A stretch of 36,665 nt of DNA from Alkalihalobacillus bogoriensis ATCC BAA-922 (lineage in GTDB: Bacteria; Bacillota; Bacilli; Bacillales; Bacillaceae_F): NCBI RefSeq assembly GCF_000621445.1, contig NZ_JHYI01000041.1, positions 1 to 36,665 on the forward strand, written 5' to 3'. How positions within the stretch are numbered: position 1 is the first letter of the stretch; each line of letters begins with the position of its first letter. Shown in pieces: positions 6,982-31,556 of the stretch. The translations under genes were made by a program, and so were the position numbers. The notes beneath the pieces were generated by a model. That model saw nothing but the letters and a program-made list of their open reading frames with translations, did not search any database and was not told the DNA's origin.

Positions 6982-7444
6982 ATGTCCGATATTGAAAAGT
7001 ACAGTGACCGAACATTTGAAGAACACAAGCAAGTAAATGAATATGGAGAGGATTTCTGGTATGCGAGGGATTTAGCTCAAATATTACAAACGGTTTGTGT
7101 AAATAGTGGATATAATCCAGAAGACCATTTTTCCTACATGGGAAAAATGGTTCAACTCGGATCAGGTGCAACAAGAGAAATAGAAGAGTGGGAACTTTTA
7201 CGTTATGCATGCTATTTTATTGTCCAAACTCGTAAACAAGAATTGCAAGAGCAATTTGAAACTCATACAAGGAAAATACAATGCTAACCGTACTCATTAT
7301 GAAGTCGGTAAAAAGGTACGACAAACGGTTGAAGAACTTGGGAGAACGATGCCAGAAGATTTGTCAACACCTGAGAAAAGTATTAAACAAATTGAGAAGA
7401 TGGAAGAAAAGAAGAGGTTGGGAAATGGTGACGTAGATGTATAG
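6982..7444 (+). pseudogene. dinD: decayed DinD (DNA-damage-inducible protein D) gene
   Basis: The first part (6982-7287) carries the DinD-like N-terminus: FEEHKQVNEYGEDFWYARDL, then EDHFSYMGKMVQLGSGA and LLRYACYFI. It jumps to VQTRKQELQEQFE with an internal deletion, and the C-terminal DinD block (THYEVGKKVRQTVEELG, MPEDLSTPEKSIKQIEKME) appears in another frame at about 7265-7444. The fragment total is far below an intact DinD of about 280 residues. DinD-type genes are often found inside Bacillus type I restriction operons, so this is a decayed passenger. The N-terminal piece still has a fair ribosome binding site and may be translated. Confidence 0.85.
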
Positions 7445-8714: not shown

Positions 8715-8725
8715 CTCCCTTTACT

Positions 8726-8746
8726 CCTTTTCCCTTATTCTCTACT
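8726..8746 (-). repeat. dispersed repeat, inverted imperfect copy
   Basis: On the minus strand this reads AGTAGAG followed by TAAGGGAAAAGG, matching the repeats at 3346 and 36614 apart from a small difference in the middle. It lies in the hsdS-hsdR gap. Confidence 0.45.
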
Positions 8747-8760
8747 ATGGGGGTGTAATC

Positions 8761-11700
8761 GTGTCAAACAGGCAAAGTTATGATGAACAAACGATAAGTC
8801 AACAGCCTGCCATTGAAGTTCTAACAGGTTTAGGCTATAACTACATAACGGCAGAACAAGCAGAGCAAATGCGTGGTAATCTCTATAATGTTCTCTTGAA
8901 AACTGTATTGGAAAAGAAATTGAAAGAGTTAAACTCTTTTGAGTATCAAGGAGTCGCTTACTCTTTTAGCGATAATAATATCAATCAAGCGATTCGGGAT
9001 TTAGATGAACCTTTGACTGATGGACTCGTAAAAACAAACGAGAAAATCTATGAAACATTGATGCTGGGTCGAAGTTATACTGAGTTTTTACCAGATGGCT
9101 CAAAGAAATCATTTACCATTCAATTTATAGATTGGGAGAACATAGAGAATAATGTTTTCCATGTTGTCGAGGAGTTTTCCGTTGAACGTGAAGATGGTCG
9201 TGGGAACGCTCGCCCTGACATTGTCCTCTTTGTGAATGGTATTCCTTTTGCTGTTATTGAATGTAAAAGATCATCCATTAACGTTGGGCAAGGCATTGAA
9301 CAAATGATTCGTAACCAAGGAAAAGATTATATTCCTCAGATTTTCAAGTATGTTCAAATTGTCATGGCAACTAACAAAAATGAAACTCAATATGCTACGT
9401 GTAATACTCCTAAGAAATTCTGGTCGATTTGGAAAGAAGAGAAGGAAGAATGGTTGCAAGAGCAGTTAAATAAAACAGTAGTTAACCGACTGCCCACCAC
9501 TCAAGATAAAAACATCATTTCTTTATTTCATCCAGAGCGTCTCCTTGAATTAACTCATTTTTTCACTTTATTTGATAAAGATATTAAGAAAATAACTCGA
9601 TATCAACAATATTTTGCGATTAAAGAAATAATTAAAACAATTGAAGAAAGTGATGAGTTTGGAAATCGTCAGTCGGGCGTGATCTGGCACACCCAGGGTT
9701 CTGGGAAATCACTTACAATGGTAATGCTTGCAAAGTTTATTTTAGCAGAACTCATGAAACATGATCCAAAGGTTGTTGTCGTTACTGACCGAGTGGAGTT
9801 AGATAAGCAAATTCATAAGACTTTTAACCATACAAGATTAAAGGCAAGCAGAGCAACGACAGGAGCACATTTGATTGAACTAATTAACGATAATAATGCG
9901 GATGTAGTTACAACGTTAGTCCATAAATTTGATACAGCTTCTACTAAGCAAGAGCCAATACAGTCAAAGGATATCTTTGTACTTGTTGATGAGAGTCACA
10001 GAACGCAATATGGTGAACTCCATATTAAAATGAAAAAGGTATTTCCAAATGCTTGTTATTTAGGTTTTACGGGAACGCCACTAATGAAAAAAGAAAAGAG
10101 TACGATGATTAAGTTCGGTAAGCTCATTCACACGTACACAATTGCTGATGGTGTTAAAGATAAAGCAATTTTGCCTCTACTTTATGAAGGTAAAATGGTT
10201 GACCAAACTGTAAACCAAAAAGCGATTGATAACCGATTAGAAATGATCACTCGCAACTTGAATGATAAGCAAAAAGATGAAGTTATGAAAAAATGGAGTA
10301 AGTTTGAACGAATTGCTTCTTCTAATCAACGTATTAGTATGATTGCTTTTGATATTAACCAACATTTTTTTGATAACTATAAAACGCAGGGTTCACAGTT
10401 TAAAGCGATGCTGGCAACGAATAGTAAGATTGAAGCGATTCGTTATTTTGAGGCATTTGAGGAATTGGGCGACTTAAATTGTGCGGTTGTTATTTCACCT
10501 CCTGACCAAAGAGAAGGGCATGAAGCGGTTGATGAGGAATCAAGGGATAAAGTATTAAACTTCTGGAAAAAGATGATGAACCGTTATGGTAATGAAGAAG
10601 CATATGAAGATGCGATTAAAGAAGAGTTCATTCATGGTGATGAAATTGATTTACTTGTTGTTGTCGATAAGCTTTTGACAGGATTTGATGCACCGAGAGC
10701 AACCGTTTTATATATTGATAAACCGATGAAAGAGCATACTTTGCTACAAGCTATAGCCAGGGTTAATCGTTTGTACGAAGGAAAAGACTTTGGGTACATT
10801 ATCGATTATAGAGGATTGTTAGATAAGCTGGATCAAGCATTGGAAATGTACTCTGGAGCAGGATTAGAAAATTTTGATCCTACTGACTTACAAGGTTCAT
10901 TATACGATGTTATTAGCATTATTGGCTCCTTGCGACAATATCATTCTGATTTACTTCAAATCTTTAAGCCGATTAAAAACAAGCAAGACAATGAAGAGTA
11001 TGAAGTGTTGTTAGAAGACGAGGAGTTAAGGGAAGAGTTTTATGGTGTGTTGAGTAAGTTTGGGCGTAATCTTGGTATTGCCTTAGAATCGGAAAAGGTT
11101 TACAATGCATTGCCCCATGAGGAATTACAAACGTATAAAAAAGATTTCAAGTTCTTCCAAGAACTACGTAAAAGTGTAAAGTTGCGTTACTCCGATACTA
11201 TTGATCACAAAGAGTATGAAGCAAAAATGCAAAAGTTGATGGACAACTATATTTCAGCAGAAGACATAATTCGTATTACGAATCCCGTTGATATTTTAAA
11301 TGAAAAAGCATTTGAGGAAGAGCTGGAACGGTTGGAATCCAAAAGAGCTAAAGCCGATGCAATTCGCACTCGTTTAACAAAAAGTGTAAATACGAAGTGG
11401 GATGAAAACCCTGCTTACTACAAAAAATTCTCTGAACGCATTCGTGAAGCGATTGAAGCGTATAAAGAGAAGCGAATTTCTGAGGCTGAATATCTAAATA
11501 CAATGAAAGATATCATGAACGAATATAGAAAAGGTGAGCCTGTGGATGATTTTCCATCTGTTATTAAAGAGAATCGAGCGGCCCAAGCGTTTTATGGCGT
11601 TACAAAAGAGATTATGAATGAAGTAAAAGAGAACGCTGTACCTTATGAAACGTTAGGAAGCTTAGCGTTGAAAATGGATGAAATTATTAGAGAATATACA

Positions 11701-11862
11701 AAAGTGGATTGGCATGATAACATCCAAGTTCACAATAAAATAGCACAAGAATTAGATGATCTTCTATACGATTTCTCAAAAGACAATCAGATTGATTTAA
11801 ACTTGGATCAAGCAGATAAAATCATTGAGCAAATTAAAACGGTAGCATTAAGACGTTATTAG
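8761..11862 (+). CDS. hsdR: type I restriction endonuclease subunit R
   Basis: This is the 1033-residue motor and nuclease of the restriction complex; it translocates and cuts unmodified DNA. GTG 8761 is chosen because GGGGGTG lies 5-11 nt upstream. The nuclease domain has Asp153 in PDIVLFVNG and IECK with Glu167 and Lys169, a complete PD-(D/E)XK set. SF2 helicase motifs follow: Walker A GSGKS (Lys316), DESH at 410-413, GFTGTP, and a late motif around LLTGFDAPRATVLYIDKP. The C-terminal helical region should bind HsdM. No lesion is seen, so the system is probably active. Confidence 0.97.
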   Translation: MSNRQSYDEQTISQQPAIEVLTGLGYNYITAEQAEQMRGNLYNVLLKTVLEKKLKELNSFEYQGVAYSFSDNNINQAIRDLDEPLTDGLVKTNEKIYETLMLGRSYTEFLPDGSKKSFTIQFIDWENIENNVFHVVEEFSVEREDGRGNARPDIVLFVNGIPFAVIECKRSSINVGQGIEQMIRNQGKDYIPQIFKYVQIVMATNKNETQYATCNTPKKFWSIWKEEKEEWLQEQLNKTVVNRLPTTQDKNIISLFHPERLLELTHFFTLFDKDIKKITRYQQYFAIKEIIKTIEESDEFGNRQSGVIWHTQGSGKSLTMVMLAKFILAELMKHDPKVVVVTDRVELDKQIHKTFNHTRLKASRATTGAHLIELINDNNADVVTTLVHKFDTASTKQEPIQSKDIFVLVDESHRTQYGELHIKMKKVFPNACYLGFTGTPLMKKEKSTMIKFGKLIHTYTIADGVKDKAILPLLYEGKMVDQTVNQKAIDNRLEMITRNLNDKQKDEVMKKWSKFERIASSNQRISMIAFDINQHFFDNYKTQGSQFKAMLATNSKIEAIRYFEAFEELGDLNCAVVISPPDQREGHEAVDEESRDKVLNFWKKMMNRYGNEEAYEDAIKEEFIHGDEIDLLVVVDKLLTGFDAPRATVLYIDKPMKEHTLLQAIARVNRLYEGKDFGYIIDYRGLLDKLDQALEMYSGAGLENFDPTDLQGSLYDVISIIGSLRQYHSDLLQIFKPIKNKQDNEEYEVLLEDEELREEFYGVLSKFGRNLGIALESEKVYNALPHEELQTYKKDFKFFQELRKSVKLRYSDTIDHKEYEAKMQKLMDNYISAEDIIRITNPVDILNEKAFEEELERLESKRAKADAIRTRLTKSVNTKWDENPAYYKKFSERIREAIEAYKEKRISEAEYLNTMKDIMNEYRKGEPVDDFPSVIKENRAAQAFYGVTKEIMNEVKENAVPYETLGSLALKMDEIIREYTKVDWHDNIQVHNKIAQELDDLLYDFSKDNQIDLNLDQADKIIEQIKTVALRRY

Positions 11863-11880
11863 AGTTAGGTTGTGAACACC

Positions 11881-12606
11881 ATGGAAAAACATCAAATCAA
11901 ATACGGAGATAAGCTAATTTCATTTGAGTTAGAAAGAAAAAATGTAAAAAATGTGAATTTAAATATCAAACCAGATAGGACTATAACCGTATCAGCAAGT
12001 GAAAAAGTACCGCTCGACTTTATATACAGCTTTGTTAAGGGAAAGGGATCCTGGATTACGAAGCAAGTCAAAAGTTTTGAAAATGTTCAGCCTTATAAGC
12101 AAAGTGAACGAGAATATGTAAGTGGGGAGTCGTATAAATATCTTGGAAAACAATATCGTCTTCGAGTGAGAACCGTAGAGCAGAAGGAAGAGGTAAAATA
12201 CTTTCGAGGATTTCTTTATTTATATGTGAAAGACCAAGATAATTATAGTCGCAAAGCAAAATTGATGGAAGAATGGTATCGAACAAAAGCCAAAAATACC
12301 TTTGAAAAGTCGTTATTAAAAGTGTATCCACTTGTAGAGAAATACGGGGTAGCAAAACCTGGTGTAGAATTACGAACGATGAAAGCACGCTGGGGATCAG
12401 CCTTAGTTGATACAAATACCATTCTTCTTAATACAGAACTAATTAAAGCACCAAAGCATTGCATTGATTATGTCGTACTTCACGAACTTATTCACTTTAA
12501 ATATAACGACCATAGCGATAGCTTTTATAAAATGCTGTACTCGCTAATGCCAGATTGGGAGAAACGGAAAGCAATATTGGATGAGGAGATTGTGAGAGAG
12601 TTGTAA
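11881..12606 (+). CDS. YgjP-type (M48-like) metalloprotease of the restriction operon
   Basis: The protein matches the YgjP/DUF45 family: an N-terminal beta-rich region with the TITVSAS strand, the GYRWGS-equivalent KARWGSAL segment, and the zinc site HELIH in VVLHELIHFKYNDHSDSFY, with a downstream HSDSF histidine. ATG 11881 is preferred over GTG 11872 because TTAGG lies too close to the GTG. It starts only 18 nt after hsdR and is followed 9 nt later by the SH3 gene. Such proteases commonly accompany type I restriction operons; a role in turnover of HsdR is inferred, not shown. Confidence 0.88.
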   Translation: MEKHQIKYGDKLISFELERKNVKNVNLNIKPDRTITVSASEKVPLDFIYSFVKGKGSWITKQVKSFENVQPYKQSEREYVSGESYKYLGKQYRLRVRTVEQKEEVKYFRGFLYLYVKDQDNYSRKAKLMEEWYRTKAKNTFEKSLLKVYPLVEKYGVAKPGVELRTMKARWGSALVDTNTILLNTELIKAPKHCIDYVVLHELIHFKYNDHSDSFYKMLYSLMPDWEKRKAILDEEIVREL

Positions 12607-13664: not shown

Positions 13665-13949
13665 TTAAAATAACTCATTTATAAGCTCAATCTCTTCTTC
13701 ATCTAAACGGTCACTCATCAACTTAGTGGTATCATTATTTATAATCAGCTTCTCCCCTTTAGAAAGAAAAGCCAGCAATTCCTCAATTTTTTCTTCTAAT
13801 GATTTTTCACTTTGTTTTCTCTCGTAATCTTTTTGCAGAACACGACAGATATAATCACTCGAATTTGCTTGTTTAATTACGTGGTCGTAAAGGTGACGAT
13901 ACTCAGTTCGAAATGAAATTGAAATTCTAAGCTTTCGTTCTTCTTTCAT
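13665..13949 (-). CDS. parR: ParR-like centromere-binding adaptor
   Basis: A 94-residue basic-then-acidic protein encoded directly downstream of the ParM-like gene and overlapping it by 23 nt, the usual parM-parR order. The N-terminal part (RKLRISISFRTEYRHLYDHV) has the strand-helix-helix build of ribbon-helix-helix proteins, followed by a segment with SSDYICRVLQKDYE. The acidic tail ending EEEIELINELF resembles the ParR tail that binds the filament tip. ATG 13949 follows TGGAGG with 9-nt spacing. Its DNA site (parC) was not securely located; the region just upstream of parM is the usual place. Confidence 0.75.
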   Translation of the reverse strand: MKEERKLRISISFRTEYRHLYDHVIKQANSSDYICRVLQKDYERKQSEKSLEEKIEELLAFLSKGEKLIINNDTTKLMSDRLDEEEIELINELF

Positions 13950-14922
13950 GTTGTTTCGCCTCCAGGATGCTCAGGAATGACAATACGTTTGCGAATTGTG
14001 AATCGTTTAGAATTATGGCATTAGGAAAATGAGATATCAGATATTTTTTTAAGAGAATGCTACCGCCACCTACCAAGATAATTTCCTTATTAGAAAACGA
14101 GATCTTACGGCTTTTAGCGTAATTGATTATTTTCTTAATGTGTTCTTCGATTAACTGCTCAATTAAAGCATTGCTACCTTCCTGCTTTTTACCGTCAATC
14201 ACTACATATTTGTCCTTCAATATTTGCTCAATATCATCGTCATTAAAGGCAATACCGTAATTAGTAGTAAGGGATTCGGATATTTTTGAACGGAGGATAT
14301 TTATACCCAATGTGCTTGTGGTCAGGTTGTCATAGACAGGGATAAGGTTGTTAATTTCGAGGAAACTGACATTTAGTGAACCGAAATCACAAACGAGGAT
14401 TCGTCTGCCTTTAAAGTCTTTTGGATTTGAATAAGTGGGCCCGATTGCCTCTGGAAGCACATAAATTGAAGCGATTCGAAAAGAATAAGGTCGATTATTA
14501 ACTTCAATTCCTATTACATTTCCTTTTTGTTGAATAAATTGACTGTATTCTTGCTTTAACTTTTCATTTTTAAAAAGGGATAGCGGTGTATTTATTGCTA
14601 AATGGATATTTGCTAAAGCAGTTGGACTTTTTACTTTTTGAAGAACTTTAGTAATTGCAAGGTAAATAGAAAGTCGATGCTCCTCGGTTTGTTTAGTCAA
14701 ATCATAGTTCGTGTTTTCTTCGGATAATAGGTCTCCAACAGCGAACTTTTTTTGATTATAAACTACAATATCAGTCTTTGCCGTTAAATCAGCAATGGAA
14801 CCATCTATTTCCGCCACTTTGGTTCGAAATCTTCCTTTTTCAATTACATTCACCTCGTTTCTAAAGGCATATTTTGTGTAGCTTTTGCCAGAGTCAACAG
14901 CAATAAGAAAGTCGTTATACAT
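13927..14922 (-). CDS. parM: ParM-like actin ATPase for plasmid segregation
   Basis: This is an actin-family protein that forms dynamic filaments to push plasmid copies apart. Signatures are phosphate-1 AVDSGKSYTKYAF at the N-terminus, phosphate-2 VCDFGSLNVSFLEI in the middle, and adenosine motif ILVGGGSILLKKYL near the C-terminus. The start is set at ATG 14922, 11 nt behind AAGGAG (14934-14939), giving 331 residues; the longer frame to 14967 lacks a ribosome binding site. The phosphate-2 loop has Asn-Val in place of the usual Gly-Thr-type residues, within the variation of plasmid actins. It indicates that the window belongs to a low-copy plasmid. Confidence 0.88.
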   Translation of the reverse strand: MYNDFLIAVDSGKSYTKYAFRNEVNVIEKGRFRTKVAEIDGSIADLTAKTDIVVYNQKKFAVGDLLSEENTNYDLTKQTEEHRLSIYLAITKVLQKVKSPTALANIHLAINTPLSLFKNEKLKQEYSQFIQQKGNVIGIEVNNRPYSFRIASIYVLPEAIGPTYSNPKDFKGRRILVCDFGSLNVSFLEINNLIPVYDNLTTSTLGINILRSKISESLTTNYGIAFNDDDIEQILKDKYVVIDGKKQEGSNALIEQLIEEHIKKIINYAKSRKISFSNKEIILVGGGSILLKKYLISHFPNAIILNDSQFANVLSFLSILEAKQHERRTKA

Positions 14923-15040
14923 TGAATCATCACTCCTTATTATTTTTTTCTTTCTTATATGCGACAAAGTCCTATTTATAACTGAATTTAGTAGAAGAAT
15001 TGTCGAATGAGGGTTTGAGGGTATGATTTTGTCATAACAA

Positions 15041-16074: not shown

Positions 16075-16779
16075 GTGGAAAACACATTTGGTCAAATCCT
16101 GAAGCGAGAACGAAATAAACAAGGTCTATCACTTGTGAAATTGTCTTCTAAAATCAACAATGCAATTAACGCTTCCTATATCAACCGATTAGAAACAGGT
16201 GATCAGCAGAATCCAGGATTTACTGTTGTGTGTATGCTATGTTCAGCTCTCAATATAGATATGCGTGAAGTATTTCGAGCGTTTAACTATGAAAGCTTAA
16301 TTACTAACTATAATAAAGAAGCGGAATTTTCAATTGAGGAATTGATACGACTACACAAAGTAAAAGTACCTATGGAGAATGAGATATTAAGCAAAGAAGA
16401 GCAGGAAATGATCATTAACATAATTCAAACGGCATTTCGTATTGCTAAAAGCGATGTCCGTCTTGAAGATTTGTCCCCACTTTTACATGAAATTCAACAG
16501 CTTCACGATATCCAAAAGCGTTACGTGGATACTGTTGAAGTAGCCTTTCAATCAAAAACTTTCATTTTTAATATAACAGCTATATTAGAACAAAGTGATC
16601 TTAGTAGAGAAGAAGTGATAGAAGCACTTAAAGAGCAAATGGAATACAAGGGAAGTAAACTACTTGATGTTCGTGATGAACTTATCGTTTTACAAATTAA
16701 GGAAGAGGTTTGGTTAGCTAAAAAGGTAGATTGCGAAATTACTTTTATATCGAACTATGTTGATCCCGTTTCGTTATAA
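16075..16779 (+). CDS. XRE-family regulator with a long C-terminal domain
   Basis: GTG 16075 follows GGGGAGG with 8-nt spacing. Residues 1-70 are a Cro/CI HTH (FGQILKRERNKQGLSLVKLS, then NASYINRLETGDQQNPGF). Residues 80-234 form an acidic helical domain without a recognised family, possibly for ligand or peptide sensing. Its neighbour downstream is the large ATPase protein, which it may regulate. The GTG start and the divergent arrangement with the zinc-ribbon gene suggest autoregulation from the shared intergenic region. Confidence 0.85.
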   Translation: MENTFGQILKRERNKQGLSLVKLSSKINNAINASYINRLETGDQQNPGFTVVCMLCSALNIDMREVFRAFNYESLITNYNKEAEFSIEELIRLHKVKVPMENEILSKEEQEMIINIIQTAFRIAKSDVRLEDLSPLLHEIQQLHDIQKRYVDTVEVAFQSKTFIFNITAILEQSDLSREEVIEALKEQMEYKGSKLLDVRDELIVLQIKEEVWLAKKVDCEITFISNYVDPVSL

Positions 16780-16933: not shown

Positions 16934-19291
16934 ATGATAACAACTCAACTCAATCTAAACATCCCTACTATCTTAGTAGAGCAAAAACAATGGAACTGCT
17001 TTCGCTATATGGAAGGTAGTCAAGAAGTAAAAGTCCAGCCATATGATAGAAGGCATGGATTGGGACTAAACATTGTTAATAAAAACAATTGGCTTAGCTA
17101 TGAGGAGGCTACTGCCAAGCTAAGTGATCAGAAGTTGGATGGAGTAGGTTTCATCCTATCAGAAGAAGATGATTATGTATCCTTAGTCGTCAACAATTGC
17201 AAAAATGATACTAAAGAGTGGAGCAAAACAGCTACTTTCACGATGGACAAGTTGAGAGGAAAGGCTTTTGCGGTTTATCTACAGCAATTAAATCAGTTGC
17301 AATTCTTGTGCAAAGTGGGACAAGACCTGGAAACATCCTTAATTACGCTTTCTGATCTTGAAATCCACTCAAAATCTTACTTCTTTGCTGTAACCGATGA
17401 AACAATAGAGGATTTTGACGTAGTAAGTGATTGTACTGCTGAAATTGAGAGTATTGTTAAGGAATTCAGGGATAAGAGGCAAGGTAATGAAGGAGTAGAA
17501 GGTGTAGTTGAAGAAGGTGAACCGTCAGAGCAAAATTGTTCTTCAAATGATAAATTTGTTGACCGTCACTACTTCAATGATTTAGAACAGCAATTAAAAG
17601 ATGTAAGTCAATGGGATGGAAGTATAATATCTGCTTTTAATAATGAAGCGGGATCGGGCAAAAGTCATTTTTCCTTCGACACTTTTGCAGATATTGCTGT
17701 AAATACGGAGCATAAAATACTTTACGTTCAGAGATTTAAAAGGAATGAAGCTCTGGTTCAGACTGTTAACGAAATCAATAAACATGCAGGTGAAAAAGTA
17801 GCTGATTTCATTGATGGTGACATTAACAAAGTTACAAGAAACAAAAGGAAAAAGAGCAAGAGAGAAAAGAAGCTAAAGGCAAAAGTATTAGTAATTACTC
17901 ATAAGATGTATTCGAAAATCTGTAAAGGAGAGTACAGCGATATTATAGAAGGTCGTGAAATCTTGGTTATTGATGAATTTTTTGATCCTGTCGAACGAGT
18001 AACAGTTACAGAACAAGATATAAAAGAATTGTGGTATGAAGCAGGTCGTTTTACGAATCAAGCGTTGATTGAAACTCTTGCTAAAGAATTACGAGACTTG
18101 TTAGAACTTCACATAGAAAATCCCCGTAACAATAAAAAAATCCCCTTTATTGATTTCCCAAAAGATAAGTACGACTCATATAAAGAAATTCTTCAAGAAT
18201 TCCTTATTTTAAAAGATACAAAAGCTAAAGAAGAAATAGTGTTTGCAGAAAAAATTCTTAAAATACTTGAAAACGGTTGTCGCTATTACAACAAAGCTTT
18301 TCACACATTTGATAACCATTTGAAATTTAAACTACTGAATAATAATATCGTTCTTGATGCAAATGCAGGCTTTGATTACCGCTACCAACTCTCCAAGTTC
18401 TTCCATGTACGCCCACAAGATAAATTCTTCTCTTACGAAAATTCTATTTTTACTCATTACAAAGTGAATACGAGCAAGTTAGCACTTTCAAAAAATAGCA
18501 ACCTTTTTGAATTAGCTTTAAAAGTGCTCCCACTTGATTTTAAAGACAAAACGCTGTATGTGGTGGATAAAGAGAGTGTAGACAAATTAAAAAATGAACT
18601 CCACAATTTTCTAAAGTGTCTTCAAAAAAGTGAAGATGAGATTGAGACTATAATGAACGAAATGATAGAAATAGATTACTTTGGCAACTTAATTGGCGAA
18701 AACAACTATCGTGATTTTAGCAAAGTGGTTACGCTGAAAACTCCAAATTATGACTATCTAAGCTATGTTCTTCAATATGATTACTTTAAAGGTAGTGAGG
18801 AAAAACAGGAAGATATTGAGATTTTTAAACATGAAGGTGTAGAGAGAATCCGAACTACCAATATATTGGGTGAAATCTATCAGGCGTTAAAACGGATCAA
18901 TCGGGATAATAGTAGACCAGCTGAGTATATAGTTTTCACGTCAAATGATCTCGTTGTAGACCAGCTTATCCATGAGTTTCCTAATATCCAGGTAGAACGT
19001 AAAGAAATTGAAATAGCTGACGAAACAGATATTGAAATCAAAAAAGAAAATAAGCAAACCGAAATGAATATACGAAGAAACAAGATTAAGGAATATCTTT
19101 TGCAGTGCAAAGAAGCTGGTAAGAGTGAAGTGAGTAAACAGGAAATCAAAGATGCGATTGATTACCATGATGCTAAGAACTTTAGTAAGTTGTTAAATCC
19201 GTTAAAAGTATTTTTCGATCAGCATGGTATGATAAACAAAAAATATGCTATCGTAATTGAAGATAATATAAACGAAAAACAGGCATCGTAA
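16934..19291 (+). CDS. primase-like/helicase protein, candidate plasmid replication factor
   Basis: The 785-residue protein starts at ATG 16934 behind AAGGAG. Residues 12-90 resemble the N-terminus of primase-polymerase proteins (QWNCFRYMEGSQEVKVQPYD, NNWLSYEEA, LDGVGFILSEEDDYVSLVVNNC), but where active enzymes carry the acidic IDLDDC motif this one has LVVNNC, so the primase centre looks dead. A helicase-type ATPase follows: Walker A AGSGKSH at 239-245, VLVITHKMY near 320, and Walker B ILVIDEFF at 343-350. The C-terminus (about 727-780) looks like a winged helix. It lies between a regulator and the structured region at 19.35 kb, typical for a replication initiator or helicase loader. I did not match it to a named family. 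Confidence 0.6.
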   Translation: MITTQLNLNIPTILVEQKQWNCFRYMEGSQEVKVQPYDRRHGLGLNIVNKNNWLSYEEATAKLSDQKLDGVGFILSEEDDYVSLVVNNCKNDTKEWSKTATFTMDKLRGKAFAVYLQQLNQLQFLCKVGQDLETSLITLSDLEIHSKSYFFAVTDETIEDFDVVSDCTAEIESIVKEFRDKRQGNEGVEGVVEEGEPSEQNCSSNDKFVDRHYFNDLEQQLKDVSQWDGSIISAFNNEAGSGKSHFSFDTFADIAVNTEHKILYVQRFKRNEALVQTVNEINKHAGEKVADFIDGDINKVTRNKRKKSKREKKLKAKVLVITHKMYSKICKGEYSDIIEGREILVIDEFFDPVERVTVTEQDIKELWYEAGRFTNQALIETLAKELRDLLELHIENPRNNKKIPFIDFPKDKYDSYKEILQEFLILKDTKAKEEIVFAEKILKILENGCRYYNKAFHTFDNHLKFKLLNNNIVLDANAGFDYRYQLSKFFHVRPQDKFFSYENSIFTHYKVNTSKLALSKNSNLFELALKVLPLDFKDKTLYVVDKESVDKLKNELHNFLKCLQKSEDEIETIMNEMIEIDYFGNLIGENNYRDFSKVVTLKTPNYDYLSYVLQYDYFKGSEEKQEDIEIFKHEGVERIRTTNILGEIYQALKRINRDNSRPAEYIVFTSNDLVVDQLIHEFPNIQVERKEIEIADETDIEIKKENKQTEMNIRRNKIKEYLLQCKEAGKSEVSKQEIKDAIDYHDAKNFSKLLNPLKVFFDQHGMINKKYAIVIEDNINEKQAS

Positions 19292-19300
19292 ATAGGTAAG

Positions 19301-19340
19301 GTCAGCAGTTATCATGATCAAACTGCTGGCTTTTTTATTT
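19301..19340 (+). terminator. intrinsic terminator of the primase-like gene
   Basis: GTCAGCAGTT pairs with AACTGCTGGC around ATCATGATCA and is followed by T6. The reverse strand lacks a T run, so it works only on plus-strand transcripts. Confidence 0.9.
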
Positions 19341-19344
19341 ATTG

Positions 19345-20435
19345 CTGAAACGTAATGCCCCGTTAGCTAATGAACAAATAAAAGAATAAGCAATGGGAAA
19401 ATAGATTTATAAGAAATCCATATTATGTATAGGAGATATCACAATCAATAGCTTTATAGCAAATAGCATTAGAGCAGTGGTGTAGCAAATCAACATATAC
19501 AAGGAACTAACAGCAATAGAATGAACTAATGAACAAAGCAATCGGTTTGCTATAAAGCGTTAATTCTTTTGTTGTAGTAATTTTATTTCTTTGAAGCAAA
19601 CCTTTATTGATAAGTAATTTGCTGTGAAATCTCCTATTTGATGTGCTTTGTTCAATTGCATTCAATGGCAAATAGAAGTAGTAGAAATCTCCACTGTATT
19701 ATTGGATATGAATGGAAAGACTACTTCTATTTGTGTATCAAAGCAACAATGAAATATGGTTATGGCTATATATCATATTTGCTATGTGCGTTGCTTTGAA
19801 TAAATGCAATAGAAGCAGTACTAATCATTAGTAGTAATGCTATCATTCATGATTGTGTAGCTTCTATATGTTAGTTTGCATTCATTGCAATGTATATGTA
19901 GTAGTTGCAGTGAATTCTCCTATGTTGAATGTTGCTTTCATATTATATGCAATGCAATAGAAGCCATAAAATTTATAACTGAATTCAAGAAATGTTGTTA
20001 TGCTTCTATGGCATTTTGTTTTCATTACATTGTAGTGATATCTTCTATTTTGCTATTTTCATTGAATTCCATACAATAGAAGAGTATTTCCATATAAAAA
20101 TAGCAGATTATACGTTTTCTTCACCTTCTATTTGCGTATCTCCAATTTTTGTATATGTATTATCTGATGCGGAGAAAACTCAATTAGGTAATTGCAACTA
20201 TTGTTAAGAAGTATTCATCTGTTTTTTCCATTATTTCGTATGGTATATACATTACCCGTATGTTCGTTTTCTCCTTTATATATATATAAGAATCATACGA
20301 CTAAAATTAAAGGTTTTATGCATCAGATAAAAAATCAGATATTTATCAAATAGAACAGATGGGGCATTACGAATAATCGAAAATAACGAGCCGTATGTTA
20401 GAAGCAGAAGGTAGTAACATTAAGTTATACGGCTA
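19345..20435 (+). ncRNA. candidate large structured non-coding RNA (about 1.1 kb)
   Basis: No plausible gene exists here; the small ORFs are short, lack ribosome binding sites and overlap the repeats. Long complementary arms are: 19351-19361 with 20361-20371 (CGTAATGCCCC, perfect, enclosing almost everything); 19429-19442 with 20035-20048 (14 pairs, one internal G-U); 19451-19463 with 19546-19558 (13, perfect); 19530-19540 with 19644-19654 (11); 19669-19682 with 19720-19733 (14, perfect); 19738-19747 with 19790-19799 (10) around 19752-19760/19772-19780; 19809-19816/19860-19867; 19884-19897/19945-19958; 19951-19964/20002-20015; 20041-20049/20075-20083; 20160-20170/20320-20330 (11, perfect); 20390-20396/20427-20433. 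Non-Watson-Crick positions are mostly G-U on the plus strand, which favours a plus-strand RNA. Some arms compete or cross, implying pseudoknots or switching. A replication origin is the main alternative. No clear promoter was found. Confidence 0.55.
19624..20048 (+). repeat. repeated GTGAWWTCTCCTAT-type and AATAGAAG/CTTCTAT words
   Basis: Near-identical 14-mers occur at 19624-19637 (GTGAAATCTCCTAT), 19910-19923 (GTGAATTCTCCTAT) and 20035-20048 (GTGATATCTTCTAT), with an inverted copy at 19429-19442. AATAGAAG recurs at about 19672, 19808, 19956 and 20075, and CTTCTAT at about 19724, 19861, 20003, 20042 and 20126, giving a degenerate period of roughly 120-150 nt. The unit looks like a repeated stem-loop module. 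Confidence 0.65.
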
Positions 20436-20465
20436 ATATTGATATAATGTTAAACCGTGTGTTAT

Positions 20466-20477
20466 CTGCGGCCGCAG
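20466..20477. repeat. GC-rich 12-bp perfect palindrome
   Basis: CTGCGGCCGCAG is a perfect palindrome standing out in strongly AT-rich sequence just after the structured region. Its role is unknown. Confidence 0.5.
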
Positions 20478-20520
20478 TTTTGCAGAAGTAGGCGTAGTAG
20501 ACATAATGCGTATTGGAGCC

Positions 20521-20572
20521 AAAAAAGGTAAGGACATTTGAAGTCAAAATCTCAAGTCCCTACCTTTTATTT
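20521..20572. terminator. bidirectional terminator hairpin
   Basis: Arms AAAAAAGGTAAGGAC and GTCCCTACCTTTT pair with one G-U position. The minus strand has the better T run, so it ends the 20603 gene; on the plus strand it could end a transcript coming from the structured region. Confidence 0.75.
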
Positions 20573-20602
20573 GGAATTACTATAAGAAATGATTCTCTTA
20601 TA

Positions 20603-20932
20603 TTAAGAATAGATCTCTTTTGCTTTCTCTTTTCCGATATCAATAACATGCTTAACCGCTTTTTTTATCCAAGGTTTACTGAGGTCGTCATGACCAGCTT
20701 TCGAATGAAAGTCTTCAATTAGCTCTTTGCTAATTACGCATAGGATTTTCACGCTTGTGCCATCCTCACGCCTAATATCATCAATTTGCTGTTCTACAGG
20801 ATACGATAGATAACGATAAACATTACGATCATCAATTAAGATGTGAATCTTGGAAAGATCCCTCTTTAAAACAGACTGCACAACAGCCTCAATAAATTTC
20901 TTTTCACCATTTTGGATAAATTTTTTTCTCAT
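20603..20932 (-). CDS. hypothetical protein (109 aa)
   Basis: ATG 20932 follows GGAGG at good spacing. The protein begins MRKKFIQNGEKKFIEAVVQS, has a beta segment DLSKIHILIDDRNVYRYLSY and another TSVKILCVISKEL, and ends in a helix. The mixture of helix and strands in 109 residues suggests a compact alpha/beta domain, but no family is recognised. It is a monocistronic minus-strand gene with its own terminator, next to the structured region. Confidence 0.65.
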   Translation of the reverse strand: MRKKFIQNGEKKFIEAVVQSVLKRDLSKIHILIDDRNVYRYLSYPVEQQIDDIRREDGTSVKILCVISKELIEDFHSKAGHDDLSKPWIKKAVKHVIDIGKEKAKEIYS

Positions 20933-21393: not shown

Positions 21394-21615
21394 AGCAATG
21401 CTCCTTCGTTTAAAAAGATAGAGTATACCATTTATACAAATACTATATCAAATAATTGTAAAATATTGTAGATAATTTAACATTTTTTTAATTTATTGTT
21501 GTATATTTGTTCGGTGGTATTAAGGTGTCGAACATGGTAGAACCGATTTTGTATTTGCAGAAAGTTGACTTTGTTGTTTAATAGTCTTGTAACAAAAGAA
21601 AGGAGAGTGTTATCA

Positions 21616-22458
21616 GTGAATGCATTAGCAACTGAAGAAAAAAATGAGAAAGTTTTTACAGAACTAACCCCTTATTTGAAAGGCATATTTTTGGATGAAA
21701 TATACCCAAAAAATCTTATTCGAACCAATCTGAACAACGTAAATGAATTGTTGTCTGGGGGATTAAATACAGGAGTATATTCGTTAGTAGGAAAGTTTCA
21801 TGAAGCTTTATTTGGACTATCGACACACTTGATTGAAGATTTTGCTTCACAAAAGATGGCAGTAATTTATATCACTGAAAATGTAAAAAGAAAGCAATTC
21901 ATTCAACAGTTAATGGTTAGACATTATTACAAACAAATGAGAGATCAAGCCCCATCACTATCTTCTATTATCCATGAAATCAATACCACCCCCTTTACAA
22001 AAGAGAGTCTGCTCAAATCGATGCGATCCATTACAAATTATATTTCTGTTGTCGAGCGTACCATTGAATTCGAGGAATTGAAGCAAAAACTCACTATACA
22101 AAAAAGGAAGAATAGCAAGTTGATAGTTTTCGTAGACGGTTATTATCAGTATAGAGATGACGTAGACAGTGCATTATTAAGCAGTCTTTCGATAGATTTG
22201 TCTATTCCTATCTTTGTTTCAAAACACCTTTGTTTGGAAGATTATCAGCAACTACAATCTGGTTTTCCACCATCTTATTTGCTCTCCCAAAATGATTACC
22301 TCTTATTTTTAGAAGAAGTAAATCCTCAAACTAATGCAAAAACTTCTCCAGAATTTTCACTTTTCAATATAGCTATTTATAGTGAACTACTTCCCTACCA
22401 GACAAAACAAACCCATCTAACTTATCACAATGACTATTTTTATTTCCAAGACGCTTAG
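21616..22458 (+). CDS. DnaB/RecA-like ATPase homologue lacking Walker A
   Basis: GTG 21616 follows AAGGAGAG; upstream codons in the frame lack a ribosome binding site. The layout recalls the DnaB C-terminal (RecA-like) core: NVNELLSGGLNTGVYSLVG aligns with the segment entering the P-loop, MAVIYITENVKRKQFIQQLM with the strand and helix after it, and KLIVFVDGYYQY with Walker B. At the P-loop itself the sequence is GKFHEALFGL, with no GxxGxGK(S/T), so ATP hydrolysis is unlikely. It is the first of four closely spaced genes and may be a scaffold or inhibitor that mimics a replicative helicase. The family assignment rests on pattern, not on a search. Confidence 0.55.
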   Translation: MNALATEEKNEKVFTELTPYLKGIFLDEIYPKNLIRTNLNNVNELLSGGLNTGVYSLVGKFHEALFGLSTHLIEDFASQKMAVIYITENVKRKQFIQQLMVRHYYKQMRDQAPSLSSIIHEINTTPFTKESLLKSMRSITNYISVVERTIEFEELKQKLTIQKRKNSKLIVFVDGYYQYRDDVDSALLSSLSIDLSIPIFVSKHLCLEDYQQLQSGFPPSYLLSQNDYLLFLEEVNPQTNAKTSPEFSLFNIAIYSELLPYQTKQTHLTYHNDYFYFQDA

Positions 22459-22479
22459 AAAGAGAGAGGAGATTAGAAA

Positions 22480-22881
22480 ATGGCACAAAGAAAACCACGA
22501 GTATTAAATTTTAGAGATCTTACTGTTTACCAAAAAGCAATATGTTATCAGAAGGAAATATATGAAGCTATCAAAGCTTTCCCTCATTTTGAAGACGATG
22601 TATTGATCACTGCCCTACGTAAGAATGTTGTTTCAATTACTTTGAATATCGCAGAGGGTAATGCAAACTTTTATTACAACAAAGAACATGATCGTTACAA
22701 TACTGCCGTTGAGAAATTGTCATCAACAAGGGCTATCCTTGATTTAGCTCTCTCATTGAACTATATCTCGGCACAACAGTATAAGGAGCTTGATAATTTG
22801 GCTGAAGAGGTGTTAAGAATGTTGATTAAGTTAATGGATAAAATTCATATTAAAAATAAAAGAAGTGAATCTGCATGTTAA
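22480..22881 (+). CDS. four-helix-bundle protein, S23/Avd-like, copy 1
   Basis: ATG 22480 sits behind GAGGAG, 21 nt after the ATPase gene. The 133-residue protein fits the S23-type four-helix-bundle family: LNFRDLTVYQKAICYQKEIY (helix 1), LITALRKNVVSITLNIAEGN with the conserved IAEG, YNTAVEKLSSTRAILDLAL (helix 3) and QYKELDNLAEEVLRMLIKLM (helix 4). Relatives include proteins encoded in 23S rRNA intervening sequences and the Avd subunit of diversity-generating retroelements, which bind nucleic acid. No reverse transcriptase or template repeat is nearby. This copy is closest to the family consensus. Confidence 0.9.
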   Translation: MAQRKPRVLNFRDLTVYQKAICYQKEIYEAIKAFPHFEDDVLITALRKNVVSITLNIAEGNANFYYNKEHDRYNTAVEKLSSTRAILDLALSLNYISAQQYKELDNLAEEVLRMLIKLMDKIHIKNKRSESAC

Positions 22882-23267
22882 AAGAGCTGAGTGCATTAAA
22901 AATGACAACTTTAAATATTGTAGAGTTTGCACAGCATTTTAAAGTTGAAATGGAAAAAATTGTAGCAAAACTTCCTCAGTATGAAAAGTATAATTTAATT
23001 GATCAAGCTATTAGAGCAAGTGAGTCTATTTATAGTAATAAGAAAGACTATGAAAAGTTGACGACTTTGCAAGCCTTTGATCATTTGAATATTTCGCTGG
23101 GAAGTTGTGCAGAGTGCATGGCTATTATCGACTCATGCTATTCGTTAAGTTATATTACAATAGAAGAGTTCGATACACTTAATGGTATAGCAGAAAGTAT
23201 CTACAAGGAATTAGTCCATGTGCTAAATAGGATGAAAAGGGAGGAGACGGATTATGCATGTTGCTAA
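22875..23267 (+). CDS. four-helix-bundle protein, divergent copy 2
   Basis: ATG 22875 overlaps the previous gene's end by 7 nt; ATG 22902 is a possible alternative start. The 130-residue protein has the same helix lengths and spacing as copy 1: TLNIVEFAQHFKVEMEKIV, NLIDQAIRASESIYSN in the IAEG position, FDHLNISLGSCAECMAIID, and FDTLNGIAESIYKELVHVL. The N-terminal FRDL motif is lost and the centre has diverged, so it is a diverged paralogue probably forming mixed oligomers with its neighbours. It ends in a Cys-Cys dipeptide. Confidence 0.8.
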   Translation: MLKELSALKMTTLNIVEFAQHFKVEMEKIVAKLPQYEKYNLIDQAIRASESIYSNKKDYEKLTTLQAFDHLNISLGSCAECMAIIDSCYSLSYITIEEFDTLNGIAESIYKELVHVLNRMKREETDYACC

Positions 23268-23619
23268 CTTTCGCAAGAGTTCGTTATACCAGAATTCCTT
23301 AGAATTATTTCATGAGGTGTATCTAACAACAGAAGAGAATGGTGATAAATTAACAGAAATTGAAATAAAACAATTACGTGAAAGAGTAATTAAAAATACG
23401 ACAAAGATAACAACAGGTATCATACAGCAAAATATAAAGATGAAGTTTCGTTATTTTAACCATGCAAAAAAAGAAATAGAGAAACTAATGGAAGAAGCTT
23501 TTACACTGTATCAACAGGGAAAAATTTCTGATTCGGATGGGCAAATTATTGAGTATTATTCAATACAGATTTTGAAGTTACTAAATTATTATTTTGGAAA
23601 AAATAAAAGAGATGGCTAA
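23254..23619 (+). CDS. four-helix-bundle protein, divergent copy 3
   Basis: ATG 23254 follows GGAGGAG and overlaps copy 2 by 14 nt. The 121-residue protein begins NFRKSSLYQNSLELFHEVY, the counterpart of the FRDLxVYQKA helix of copy 1, then IKQLRERVIKNTTKITTGII replaces the IAEG helix, YFNHAKKEIEKLMEEAFTLY is helix 3 and a final helix ends in GKNKRDG. It is clearly a third member of the same fold, more basic than copy 2. Overlapping starts throughout indicate fixed stoichiometry. Confidence 0.75.
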   Translation: MHVANFRKSSLYQNSLELFHEVYLTTEENGDKLTEIEIKQLRERVIKNTTKITTGIIQQNIKMKFRYFNHAKKEIEKLMEEAFTLYQQGKISDSDGQIIEYYSIQILKLLNYYFGKNKRDG

Positions 23620-28566: not shown

Positions 28567-28630
28567 GCCAATTTACAAGCAACCAAAATTGTCTATCTGT
28601 ACTAAAAAATAATAGAGGGAAGTGGTTTAT

Positions 28631-29497
28631 TTGCCAATTTCAAAACATAATCAAACCTATGAAAGTCTCAAAAGGCTAATAAAAGAAGGCTATGGTCAAG
28701 GTGAGGGGGTGAACTATAAACCTTTTATTGATGTGTTTAGAGTTTCAACAAAAGGTAGAGCAACACGAGTGAAAGGCTGGAAGAGTCAGCGTGTTCATCA
28801 CTTTTTGTCAGACTCAGAAACCCGTTATTTTTACTTATTGGAATTTGATGATGAGGTCATAGATATAAGAGAGCACTATCCTCTCATTCAAGATATGGAT
28901 AAAGTTATGCCTAATCTCGATGAACAATTAAAGAAGCGGTTATTCAACCAAAGAACAGGAGAGCCTCTCATATTAACAACTACATTTCTTGTAACTAAAA
29001 AAGATCATACAGATTCAGTTTCTCATTTTGCAAGGTCTATTAAGGATTATCGGCAGTTAGAAAATGCTCAGGTTATTGAACGTTTTGAAATTCAGAGGCG
29101 GTATTGGTCAGAAAAAGGAATTGATTATGGGATCGTCACGAATAAAGAAATACCAAAAGTGTTTGCTAAAAATATTGAGTACATACATTCATCTTATTCG
29201 CTACATGAATATGGTATTGATATTGAACAGCAACAACTGTACTCGGATGTTTTACTTCATTTACTAATTCAAGCAGGAAAAACACAAGTTAATGAAATTT
29301 TGACTCATTTTGATCGGGAAGTAAATGTCGAAAAAGGCACAGGTCTATTGTTGTTTAAACATTTAATAGCAACTAAAAGGTTAATGGTTGATATGACAAA
29401 TGCAATATCACTAACAATGCCTTCTAATCAAGTCTTGATTGTTGGACAAGGGGGTGATGAGATTGGTCATCTCGATAAACATGTTAATTCAATATAA
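28631..29497 (+). CDS. tnsA: TnsA-like transposase subunit with altered catalytic site
   Basis: TTG 28631 is preferred (GAGGG 10 nt upstream); GTG 28622 is too close. In Tn7, TnsA cuts the 5' ends so that the element moves by cut-and-paste. Here alignment with E. coli TnsA is clear over IKEGYGQG, RVHHFLSDSE, VIDIREHYPL, TTTFLVTKKD, FEIQRRYWSEKGI and VTNKEIP. The catalytic Glu63 is kept (SDSE) and Lys132 too (SIKDY). However, STDFLV of the reference is TTTFLV here, so Asp114 is Thr (codon ACA, supported by direct translation), and Gln130 is Ser. The nuclease is probably inactive while the fold and TnsB/TnsC contacts are kept. It overlaps tnsB. Confidence 0.9.
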   Translation: MPISKHNQTYESLKRLIKEGYGQGEGVNYKPFIDVFRVSTKGRATRVKGWKSQRVHHFLSDSETRYFYLLEFDDEVIDIREHYPLIQDMDKVMPNLDEQLKKRLFNQRTGEPLILTTTFLVTKKDHTDSVSHFARSIKDYRQLENAQVIERFEIQRRYWSEKGIDYGIVTNKEIPKVFAKNIEYIHSSYSLHEYGIDIEQQQLYSDVLLHLLIQAGKTQVNEILTHFDREVNVEKGTGLLLFKHLIATKRLMVDMTNAISLTMPSNQVLIVGQGGDEIGHLDKHVNSI

Positions 29498-31556
29498 ATA
29501 TGACTCTAACCGTATAGAAAGAGTGATTTGGATTAACGAACAATATCAATCCTGTTTTCTTGTAAACATTTTTGATAACTCATTACCTTTTGAAAGGGAA
29601 ATTGTTGAGATTAAAAGTTTGTTTAAAAATAAAGAAATTATGCTTGTTGAAAAAGATCCGTTTGCAGTTATGCACAGTGATTCGGGAGTAAGTGAAAAAG
29701 CGTTGAAGTTGCAAGAACAATCATGGAAAGTTATTAACAATTTGTTAGTAAATGGTGTGGGCAATCTGTTGATAAGCAAAGAGAGAAATAAACTTATCAA
29801 CAAAGTTGCAAAAGATATGAAAATATCAAAGAAAAGTGTTTTGAAATATTTAAAACGATATTGGAAAAGAGGAATGAATAAGAATGCATTACTGCCTGAT
29901 TTTGCAAACTGCGGTGGGAAAGGAAAAGACAAAACAAGTGGAAATGCAAAAAGAGGAAGACCAGGAGTTGCAAATGAAGGCATCAATGTTGATGAGGAAA
30001 CAAAAAAAATCATTAGATTAGCAAAGAGAAAGTTTTATGAAAAGAAAACTAATGTTAGCTTACGTTTTGCATACGAACAGATGCTAAAAGAGTTTTATTA
30101 TAACGAATTAGATGAAAGTCCTTATTCAATCCCAACCTACAAGCAATTTGTCTATTGGATAAAAAAAGAGCAAAATGATGGATTAGCAGTGATAAGAAGG
30201 AAGGGGAAACGTCATTTTGACTTGAATTATCGCCCTTTATTAAGCAGTGCTACTTCAGAAGTTCGTTCTCCATTAGAACGTGTACAAATAGATTCGACTG
30301 TGGCAGATGTCTATTTAGTTAGTGAGTTTAATCGGAATTGGATCATAGGAAGACCTATCTTATATTTTTGTAAAGATGTGTGGTCAAGAATGATTGCAGG
30401 AATACATGTGGCTTTAGAAGGTCCGAATTTTGAACAAGCCAGAATAGCTTTAATGAACATGGTGGAAAACAAGAAAGATTTCTGTAAACGGTACGACATT
30501 TCAATAGAAGAGGAAGAGTGGCCGACTGCTCATATGCCTTCATGTCTTGTAGCAGACCGAGCTGAGCTATTATCAAATGCTTCTAATGTATTAACGGAAG
30601 AACTGAATATTACAATAGAAAATTCTGCTCCGTTTCGAGGGGATTTCAAAGCAATTGTCGAGCAACATTTTCGTTTAATTAACATTCAAGTCAAGCCGTT
30701 GTTACCAGGATCAGTTGGTACAGATTTTCGGAAAAGAGGCGTGAAGGATTATCGATTAGAAGGGAAATTAACACTAAAGGAGTTTACCAAAATCATAATA
30801 AAGTGTGTTCTTTATTACAACAATCATCAAGTAATTGACCAATATATTCGTGATGAAGAAATGATACAAGCTGAAATAGAGCCGATACCTATTCGTTTAT
30901 GGAATTGGGGAATCCAAAATCGTGCGGGTAAGCTCCGAACAATTTCTACAGAACTTATGATGCTTTATTTACTTCCTAAAGAAAGAGCAACAGTAACGGG
31001 AAAAGGAATTAAATTTAAAAATATTTATTACAGCTCAAATTTGGCTTTAAAGGAACAATGGTTTGTGAAAGCAAGACTAAACGGAAGTTGGAAAGTAGAT
31101 GTAACTTATGATCCAAGAAATATGAATTACATTTATTTGCGAGGAATTCACAGAGACTCTTTTGAAAAGTGTTTTCTATTAGATTATCAAGCTCGCTATA
31201 AATTTAAAACATTTGAGGATGTGGCTTATCTCCAACAACATGAAAAGGTGGATAAACAAAGTCACAAGCAAGACGAATTAAAAGAAAGAATTCGGCTAAT
31301 CGAAGATGTTGAAAGCATTGTTAAACAAGCAGAAAAGCTGGCAAAGAATGAAATAGTTGAGATGAGTAAAAGCAGTCGAGTGAAAGGAATAAAGAAAAAT
31401 CGGCAATTAGAAATAGAGCGAATGTCCAAAGGGGAGATGTTAGTATCTGTTCCCGAAAGTTACAATCATTCAAGTGAACATAGTCAACAGTGTGAGGATC
31501 CAGATTTAGTGTTGTTTAAGAAAATGCAAAAGAAAGGATTGCAACAAAATGAATAA
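29481..31556 (+). CDS. tnsB: TnsB-like DDE transposase
   Basis: ATG 29481 overlaps tnsA by 17 nt and is preferred by the N-terminal family pattern (YDSNRIERVIW); ATG 29457 behind GGGGG is possible. The 692-residue protein joins 3' ends to the target. The DDE triad is complete: Asp in QIDSTVADVYLV (codon 30291), Asp in VADRAEL (30555) and Glu in KAIVEQHF (30660). The N-terminal part has HTH DNA-binding modules that should recognise the end repeats. The C-terminal tail is lysine- and glutamate-rich and probably contacts TnsC. Strand transfer should still work, unlike the TnsA cut. Confidence 0.95.
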   Translation: MLIQYKYDSNRIERVIWINEQYQSCFLVNIFDNSLPFEREIVEIKSLFKNKEIMLVEKDPFAVMHSDSGVSEKALKLQEQSWKVINNLLVNGVGNLLISKERNKLINKVAKDMKISKKSVLKYLKRYWKRGMNKNALLPDFANCGGKGKDKTSGNAKRGRPGVANEGINVDEETKKIIRLAKRKFYEKKTNVSLRFAYEQMLKEFYYNELDESPYSIPTYKQFVYWIKKEQNDGLAVIRRKGKRHFDLNYRPLLSSATSEVRSPLERVQIDSTVADVYLVSEFNRNWIIGRPILYFCKDVWSRMIAGIHVALEGPNFEQARIALMNMVENKKDFCKRYDISIEEEEWPTAHMPSCLVADRAELLSNASNVLTEELNITIENSAPFRGDFKAIVEQHFRLINIQVKPLLPGSVGTDFRKRGVKDYRLEGKLTLKEFTKIIIKCVLYYNNHQVIDQYIRDEEMIQAEIEPIPIRLWNWGIQNRAGKLRTISTELMMLYLLPKERATVTGKGIKFKNIYYSSNLALKEQWFVKARLNGSWKVDVTYDPRNMNYIYLRGIHRDSFEKCFLLDYQARYKFKTFEDVAYLQQHEKVDKQSHKQDELKERIRLIEDVESIVKQAEKLAKNEIVEMSKSSRVKGIKKNRQLEIERMSKGEMLVSVPESYNHSSEHSQQCEDPDLVLFKKMQKKGLQQNE

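What the first reader, a model, noticed from the sequence alone, without database searches (positions are those of the whole stretch)
19345..20435. A 1.1-kb gene-free region folded into an unusually ornate set of long helices
Seen directly: at least twelve complementary arm pairs of 7-14 bp, several perfect, with an outermost 11-bp helix (19351-19361 with 20361-20371) enclosing nearly the whole region. The AATAGAAG/CTTCTAT and GTGAWWTCTCCTAT words recur as modular stem-loops. Non-Watson-Crick positions in the long helices (for example 19433 with 20044, 19893 with 19949, and 19362-19364 with 20358-20360) are G-U on the plus strand and would be C-A on the minus strand, which favours a plus-strand RNA. 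Known giant ornate RNAs (GOLLD, ROOL) occur on phages and plasmids, so a new class of this kind is plausible. Competing or crossing helices (19530-19540 with 19644-19654 crossing 19451/19546; 19544-19551 alternative with 19595-19602) suggest pseudoknots or switching. Alternative: an iteron-bearing origin next to the replication-like gene.
Basis: partly seen in the sequence, partly recalled or inferred. Interest (0 to 1): 0.85.

Follow-up and report, generated by a model that had tools for sequence, protein, structure and literature searches.

The report
Plasmid hairpin array beside helicase gene
Next to a presumed replication helicase gene, a bacterial plasmid carries about 1.1 kb of non-coding DNA whose strand can fold into many long hairpins, and a second contig of the same genome keeps a diverged copy, but whether it works as an RNA or as DNA is not yet known.

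Summary
Long complementary arms are far above shuffles, and no Rfam family matches at its gathering score. A second copy, 71% identical over about 600 nt, lies at the same place, 3' of a homologous gene, on another contig of the same genome. Four ATAGAAG...CTTCTAT hairpins alternate with GTGAAWTCTYCTAT segments; the module pattern occurs 6 times in this genome and in 0 of 396 other genomes of the order searched. The neighbouring gene encodes a DinG/XPD-fold SF2 helicase, probably the replication gene. Of 11 loci with this gene examined, 6 carry an inverted repeat of about 58 bp 3' of it; the window does not. Both-sided changes are few (3 of 105 pairs), and the outermost helix is not kept in the second copy. 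Best reading: a replication-linked cis region acting as a folded single strand, RNA and DNA about equally open. A new RNA class of the GOLLD/ROOL kind is possible, not shown.

The parts
16934..19291 (+). 785-aa replication-like protein: N-terminal primase/helicase-like domain plus DinG/XPD-fold SF2 helicase
19300..19337 (+). probable terminator of the helicase gene (CAGCAGTT/AACTGCTG then T run)
19351..19361 (+). 5' strand of the outermost 11-bp helix (partner 20361-20371)
   Evidence: 11 of 11 pairs; 5' strand has no counterpart in the second copy
19429..19442 (+). ATAGGAGATATCAC, complement of the motif at 20035-20048
   Evidence: 13 of 14 plus G-T
19451..19463 (+). 13-bp arm pairing with 19546-19558, crossing the A1 stem
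   Evidence: 13 of 13; not recognised in the second copy
19531..19655 (+). module A1: stem GAACAAAGCA/TGCTTTGTTC with motif GTGAAATCTCCTAT
   Evidence: stem kept and 12 bp long in second copy
19669..19733 (+). hairpin B1, 14-bp stem around ATAGAAG/CTTCTAT
   Evidence: kept in second copy with one both-sided change T-A to C-G
19737..19798 (+). module A2: CAAAGCAAC/GTTGCTTTG stem
   Evidence: kept in second copy with G-C to G-U; motif degenerate in the window
19809..19867 (+). hairpin B2
19869..19940 (+). module A3 with TTGCAGTGAATTCTCCTATG
19957..20009 (+). hairpin B3
20010..20059 (+). module A4 with TTGTAGTGATATCTTCTAT
20076..20131 (+). hairpin B4
20236..20300 (.). TCGTATG...CATACGA inverted repeat around TTTATATATATATAAG; possible degenerate counterpart of the 58-bp repeat of relatives
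   Evidence: by eye; weak, different arms and span
20357..20448 (+). 3' segment conserved in second copy: ACAGATGGGGCATTAYGA and hairpin AGCCGTAT/ATACGGCT (20389-20396/20427-20434)
   Evidence: second copy has one G-C to G-U in the hairpin
20468..20475 (.). GCGGCCGC, also 3' of the second copy and of the Bacillus sp. HNG locus
   Evidence: read by eye; L015 position 7616
20524..20568 (.). inverted repeat with T runs on both sides, probable terminator for the minus-strand gene 20603-20932 and perhaps for plus-strand transcripts
   Evidence: by eye; not listed

Best explanation
The region is a non-coding cis element of the plasmid's replication locus that works as a folded single strand: four constant-arm hairpins alternating with exposed GTGAAWTCTYCTAT segments. 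My preferred version is an untranslated RNA made from the stretch between the helicase gene's terminator and about 20570, which binds a plasmid or host factor (the DinG/XPD-fold helicase beside it is the first candidate) and sets replication or copy number. Shown: the structure, its conservation in a second copy in the same genome, and its place 3' of this helicase gene in both. Inferred: that the contigs are plasmids, that the neighbouring gene is the replication gene, that a single strand is the active form, that it is transcribed, and which factor it binds. RNA over DNA is only a slight preference.
For: Complementary arms far above chance and MFE z -5.3 to -7.2. Second copy at the same place on another contig, 413 of 578 aligned bases identical over eight elements, with consensus-fold z -9.1. 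Module pattern 6 times in this genome, 0 of 396 others. The array goes with the helicase type: contig C33 of the same genome has similar ParM and four-helix-bundle genes (by eye) and the RecA-like gene, but a DnaG/DnaB-type protein, and neither the similarity search nor the module pattern finds the array there. Hairpin flanks paired better with their own partner than with swapped ones in one test (inner flanks p 0.009 on +, 0.002 on -; outer 0.04 and 0.13). Precedent: deleting a plasmid lncRNA in L. salivarius lowered megaplasmid copy number (PMC5643018, passages read).
Against: No transcript data and no promoter signal above chance. No strand preference. Only 3 both-sided changes among 105 consensus pairs; folds of 40 shuffled alignments had a mean of 7.9. 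A Watson-Crick-only version of the own-partner test was weak (p 0.02 to 0.22, against 0.12 for control flanks further out; window alone rank 16 of 24 permutations, C26 alone rank 2 of 24). 87 of 105 consensus pairs are identical in both copies against 71% overall identity, which also fits sequence-specific binding to the arms. The array was not found in the other loci examined.
Confidence: 0.4

Rival explanations
1. The region is the plasmid's origin or strand-initiation site acting as DNA: hairpins form on the exposed strand and load replication proteins (as in single-strand origins or primosome assembly sites, recalled), or are extruded in the duplex. No transcript is needed.
For: Placement directly 3' of the presumed replication gene in both copies. 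In relatives an inverted repeat of about 58 bp, AAAAGTTGTAY-N(34-38)-RTACAACTTT, sits in the same intergenic region: matching the pattern in C26, L012, L014, L016 and L040, imperfect in L015, so 6 of 11 loci. By eye it lies in the best-conserved stretch between L012 and L040. No strand bias in the changes. The RNA and DNA readings predict the same hairpins.
Against: No exact DnaA box in the region, only two with one mismatch (19732, 19795) among 47 such sites in the window. Cumulative GC skew rises along the whole contig without a turn at the region. The 58-bp repeat was not found in this form in the window, L011, L013, L041 and L074, and one more copy lies about 18 kb from the helicase gene, upstream of HTH and BREX genes. 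1.1 kb is long for such a site.
Confidence: 0.35
2. A free-standing ornate RNA of the GOLLD/ROOL/OLE kind with a role unrelated to replication, carried by these plasmids.
For: Size, density of helices, crossing helices 19451/19546 and 19530/19644, conserved apparently unpaired motif.
Against: Place 3' of the helicase gene in both copies; no expression evidence; only two copies found; no conserved outer helix.
Confidence: 0.13
3. An array of inverted half-sites (ATAGRAG/CTYCTAT) for a DNA-binding protein, for example an incompatibility or partition site; the hairpins are a by-product of site orientation.
For: Arm words are the same in all eight B hairpins except one arm of C26 B2, with spans of 53-59; consensus pairs are more conserved than the alignment as a whole; the motif word TCTYCTAT resembles the 3' arm.
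Against: B stems reach 14 bp in both copies, longer than the shared half-site, and their module-specific extensions tend to pair (weak).
Confidence: 0.1
4. Degenerate tandem duplication without function.
For: Quasi-periodic modules of about 130 nt.
Against: Module order and spacing kept between two copies at 71% identity; no further copy of similar length in the host genome and no other module match.
Confidence: 0.02

Closest known systems
ROOL and GOLLD RNAs
   Same: Large, elaborate, carried by mobile elements; a plasmid lncRNA of L. salivarius is linked to megaplasmid copy number (PMC5643018, passages; PMC12286853, passages)
   Different: No Rfam match at gathering score; transcription unknown; sits 3' of a helicase gene; module architecture of its own
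Single-strand origins and primosome assembly sites of Gram-positive plasmids (recalled)
   Same: Gene-free, hairpin-rich, next to a replication gene
   Different: Longer (about 1.1 kb) and modular; no sequence link tested
Iteron-type plasmid origins (recalled)
   Same: Repeated words beside a replication gene
   Different: Motif repeats lie about 100-145 nt apart (or twice that) and the arm words are paired as hairpin arms, not close direct repeats
77-bp tandem repeats 3' of the related helicase gene in Paenibacillus sediminis (L013)
   Same: Repetitive array with complementary arms (by eye) at the same place, 3' of a homologous helicase gene
   Different: Regular tandem array of 6.8 copies; no similarity found to the window core by nhmmer

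Membership tests
GOLLD / ROOL / OLE (Rfam) | Match to the family's covariance model | tested here: not met
   cmscan of Rfam 15: 0 matches at gathering score in the window; at E up to 10 only 4 hits in 19200-20700, all far below gathering score and to other families
GOLLD / ROOL / OLE (Rfam) | Stable transcript | not testable with these tools
   no RNA data held
Large structured ncRNA (general) | Fold more stable than shuffles and conserved in a homologue | tested here: met
Large structured ncRNA (general) | Compensatory base changes above chance | tested here: inconclusive
   3 both-sided of 105 pairs, mean 7.9 in folds of 40 shuffled alignments; own-partner test p 0.002-0.13 but 0.02-0.22 in a second version whose control flanks gave 0.12
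Large structured ncRNA (general) | Strand-specific G-U tolerance | tested here: not met
   28 G-U vs 26 A-C changes, stricter settings 17 vs 13 and 9 vs 11; 24 vs 23
Plasmid origin region | Adjacent to the replication gene in several plasmids | tested here: inconclusive
   array adjacent in 2 of 2 copies; relatives have other repeats at that place (58-bp repeat in 6 of 11 loci, 77-bp tandem repeats in 1); that the helicase gene is the replication gene is itself inferred
Plasmid origin region | Supports autonomous replication | not testable with these tools
   needs a mini-replicon
DinG/XPD SF2 helicase (the neighbouring gene) | Fold of the helicase core | tested here: met

The most novel reading that the evidence does not exclude
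A new class of large modular RNA, about 0.6-1.1 kb, made by a family of Bacillales plasmids next to a DinG/XPD-type replication helicase, binding that helicase or host replication proteins through repeated GTGAAWTCTYCTAT junctions and controlling plasmid copy number: a replication-linked counterpart of GOLLD and ROOL.
Probability: 0.3. Interest if true: 0.8.

Novelty: new variant of a known kind. Interest (0 to 1): 0.5.

Why it matters
If transcribed, it would tie an ornate large RNA to a plasmid replication gene and give this poorly understood group a testable function. If it acts as DNA, it is an unusual, very hairpin-rich origin working with an uncharacterised DinG/XPD-type plasmid helicase. 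Either way, two diverged copies in one genome make genetic tests simple.

Tried and rejected
Known RNA families: none at gathering score; 4 weak hits to unrelated families at E up to 10. DNA-level relatives in 72,556 plasmid and 50,697 phage records: none. In 100 relatives besides the own genome one 30-bp match, judged chance (G098, no helicase gene found). Core profile (nhmmer) against 31 fetched loci: no hits. Viral contigs: the 58-bp repeat pattern hit 4 contigs, with no helicase gene in the fetched parts; the module pattern hit 16 contigs once each, judged chance since one search found no wider similarity; a conserved-segment pattern found nothing. Helicase relatives left out of the 11 loci: an IMG/VR contig with a weak N-terminal match only (L017), a Halomarina plasmid and 14 phage records with N-terminal primase-like matches only. 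A first scan of genome contigs with the single protein found none. Anti-Shine-Dalgarno pairing of CTCCT with the helicase mRNA: 5 bp by eye in the window, none better in C26; rejected. Mobile short repeat: besides C26 and C32 the own-genome search gave only nine short matches of about 20-43 bases at E 0.008-0.67. Four-helix-bundle genes as required RNA partners: C33 has such a gene without the array, so not required; still open. DnaA-box origin: no exact box in the region. The RecA-like gene's one other relative among 299 genomes, G177, led nowhere. Literature searches: no report of this locus among the titles and abstract starts listed; passages were read of PMC5643018 and PMC12286853 only.

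Full report
What is there. The window is one whole contig (C32) of a 5.0-Mb assembly with 51 contigs. It carries plasmid-type genes: a ParM-like actin at 13927-14967 (-), an HTH gene at 16075-16779, and a 785-aa replication-like protein at 16934-19291. The structured region starts after that gene's probable terminator (by eye) and ends before a minus-strand ORF at 20603-20932. Inverted repeats exceed shuffles strongly: 24 pairs of 9 bp or more against 6.2 expected, 6 of 11 bp or more against 0.54 (each 0 of 300 shuffles). MFE z-scores are -5.3 (+) and -7.2 (-) with 30 shuffles each.

Second copy. A search of 101 genomes with the region found, besides itself, two pieces on contig C26 of the same genome (75% over about 530 bases, E 3e-78, and 75% over 84 bases, E 3e-7) and one 30-bp match in G098 judged chance. 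The C26 copy lies 3' of a homologous 813-aa gene. Searching the own genome with the C26 region found only C32 and nine short weak matches. Aligned element by element (eight pieces), identity is 62/104, 56/80, 41/59, 55/69, 55/68, 50/69, 33/50 and 61/79, together 413 of 578 (71%). The 5' 190 nt do not align well; the 3' segment with ACAGATGGGGCATTA and AGCCGTAT...ATACGG does.

Anatomy. Both copies hold four hairpins with constant arms ATAGAAG/CTTCTAT (one arm ATAGAAC in C26), spans 59, 59, 53 and 56 in the window and 58, 58, 54 and 59 in C26. They alternate with segments carrying the motif GTGAAWTCTYCTAT: 3 clear copies plus one degenerate in the window, 5 (at 70% or more to the reference) in C26 at spacings 129, 133, 141 and 101. 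The A1 stem GAACAAAGCA/TGCTTTGTTC is kept and is 12 bp in C26. B1 keeps a long stem with one T-A to C-G change. The combined pattern (motif, then hairpin) occurs 3 times in C32 and 3 times in C26, and in none of 396 other genomes of the order.

RNA or DNA. Consensus folding of the two copies is far below column shuffles on both strands (z -9.1 and -7.8; 60 shuffles), so folding is conserved. But only 3 of 105 consensus pairs changed on both sides (87 are identical, 15 changed on one side), and folds of 40 shuffled alignments had a mean of 7.9, so covariation is not shown. In one test the inner flanks of the B hairpins paired better with their own partner than with swapped partners (p 0.009 and 0.002; outer flanks 0.04 and 0.13). 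A second version gave p 0.02 to 0.22 against 0.12 for control flanks further out; the window alone ranked 16 of 24 and C26 alone 2 of 24. Promoter scans were not above chance. The data favour a structured single strand but do not tell which kind.

Relatives of the neighbouring gene. With the window and C26 that makes 11 loci. An inverted repeat of about 58 bp, AAAAGTTGTAY-N(34-38)-RTACAACTTT, lies 3' of the gene: the pattern matches in C26, L012, L014, L016 and L040, and L015 has an imperfect one, so 6 of 11. It was not found in this form in the window, L011, L013, L041 and L074. By eye it lies in the best-conserved stretch between L012 and L040. Across 398 genomes of the class the pattern occurs in 3, all with the helicase gene. 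Against a simple reading, one further copy in G433 lies about 18 kb from the helicase gene, upstream of HTH and BREX genes. L013 has 6.8 copies of a 77-bp tandem repeat instead. Fold z-scores 3' of the gene (24 shuffles): L016 first 0.9 kb -4.9 (+) and -3.1 (-), its next overlapping stretch -0.5 and -2.9; L013 -2.6 and -3.1; L012 -1.9 and -2.1; L014 and L015 show none. No array modules were recognised in these loci.

Verdict. The region is a real, rare and conserved structured element. It matches no Rfam family at gathering score. I read it as a replication-linked cis element acting as a folded strand, with RNA (0.40) slightly ahead of DNA (0.35). The literature searches listed no description of it, within an open-access library only.

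Noticed in passing
window 28622-34989 and 36311-36410: Tn7-like genes TnsA, TnsB, a TniB/AAA protein and TniQ/TnsD, with three TTTTTAC-N-TTGTCGTTCTA-like repeats near the right edge of the contig (two, the third by eye) that look like transposon-end binding sites. TnsA/B relatives also lie near the helicase gene in L013, L014 and L040.
   Followed up: partly
window 21565-23619: RecA/KaiC/DnaB-like ATPase followed by three four-helix-bundle genes (two match 23S_rRNA_IVP clearly, the third weakly). The ATPase and two such genes follow in C26; C33 has the ATPase and one such gene (by eye). Four-helix-bundle relatives also occur near the helicase gene in L012, L015, L016 and L040.
   Followed up: partly
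L013 7955-8475: 6.8 copies of a 77-bp tandem repeat with complementary arms AGTTCTGA/TCAGAAC (by eye) and the word GATAGAAGCAG, 3' of the related helicase gene in Paenibacillus sediminis.
   Followed up: partly
L039 7735-7793: A second 58-bp inverted repeat in G433, upstream of an HTH gene and BREX genes, about 18 kb from the helicase gene; the repeat may have a role beyond the replication locus.
   Followed up: partly
window 4838-12606: Type I restriction-modification genes (HsdR at 8761-11862; others by eye); a type I specificity-domain gene follows the related helicase gene in Alkalibacillus salilacus (L011).
   Followed up: no
window 2405-2777: Gene-free stretch with five local inverted repeats of 9-10 bp upstream of an HTH gene, unrelated in sequence words to the array (by eye).
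   Followed up: no
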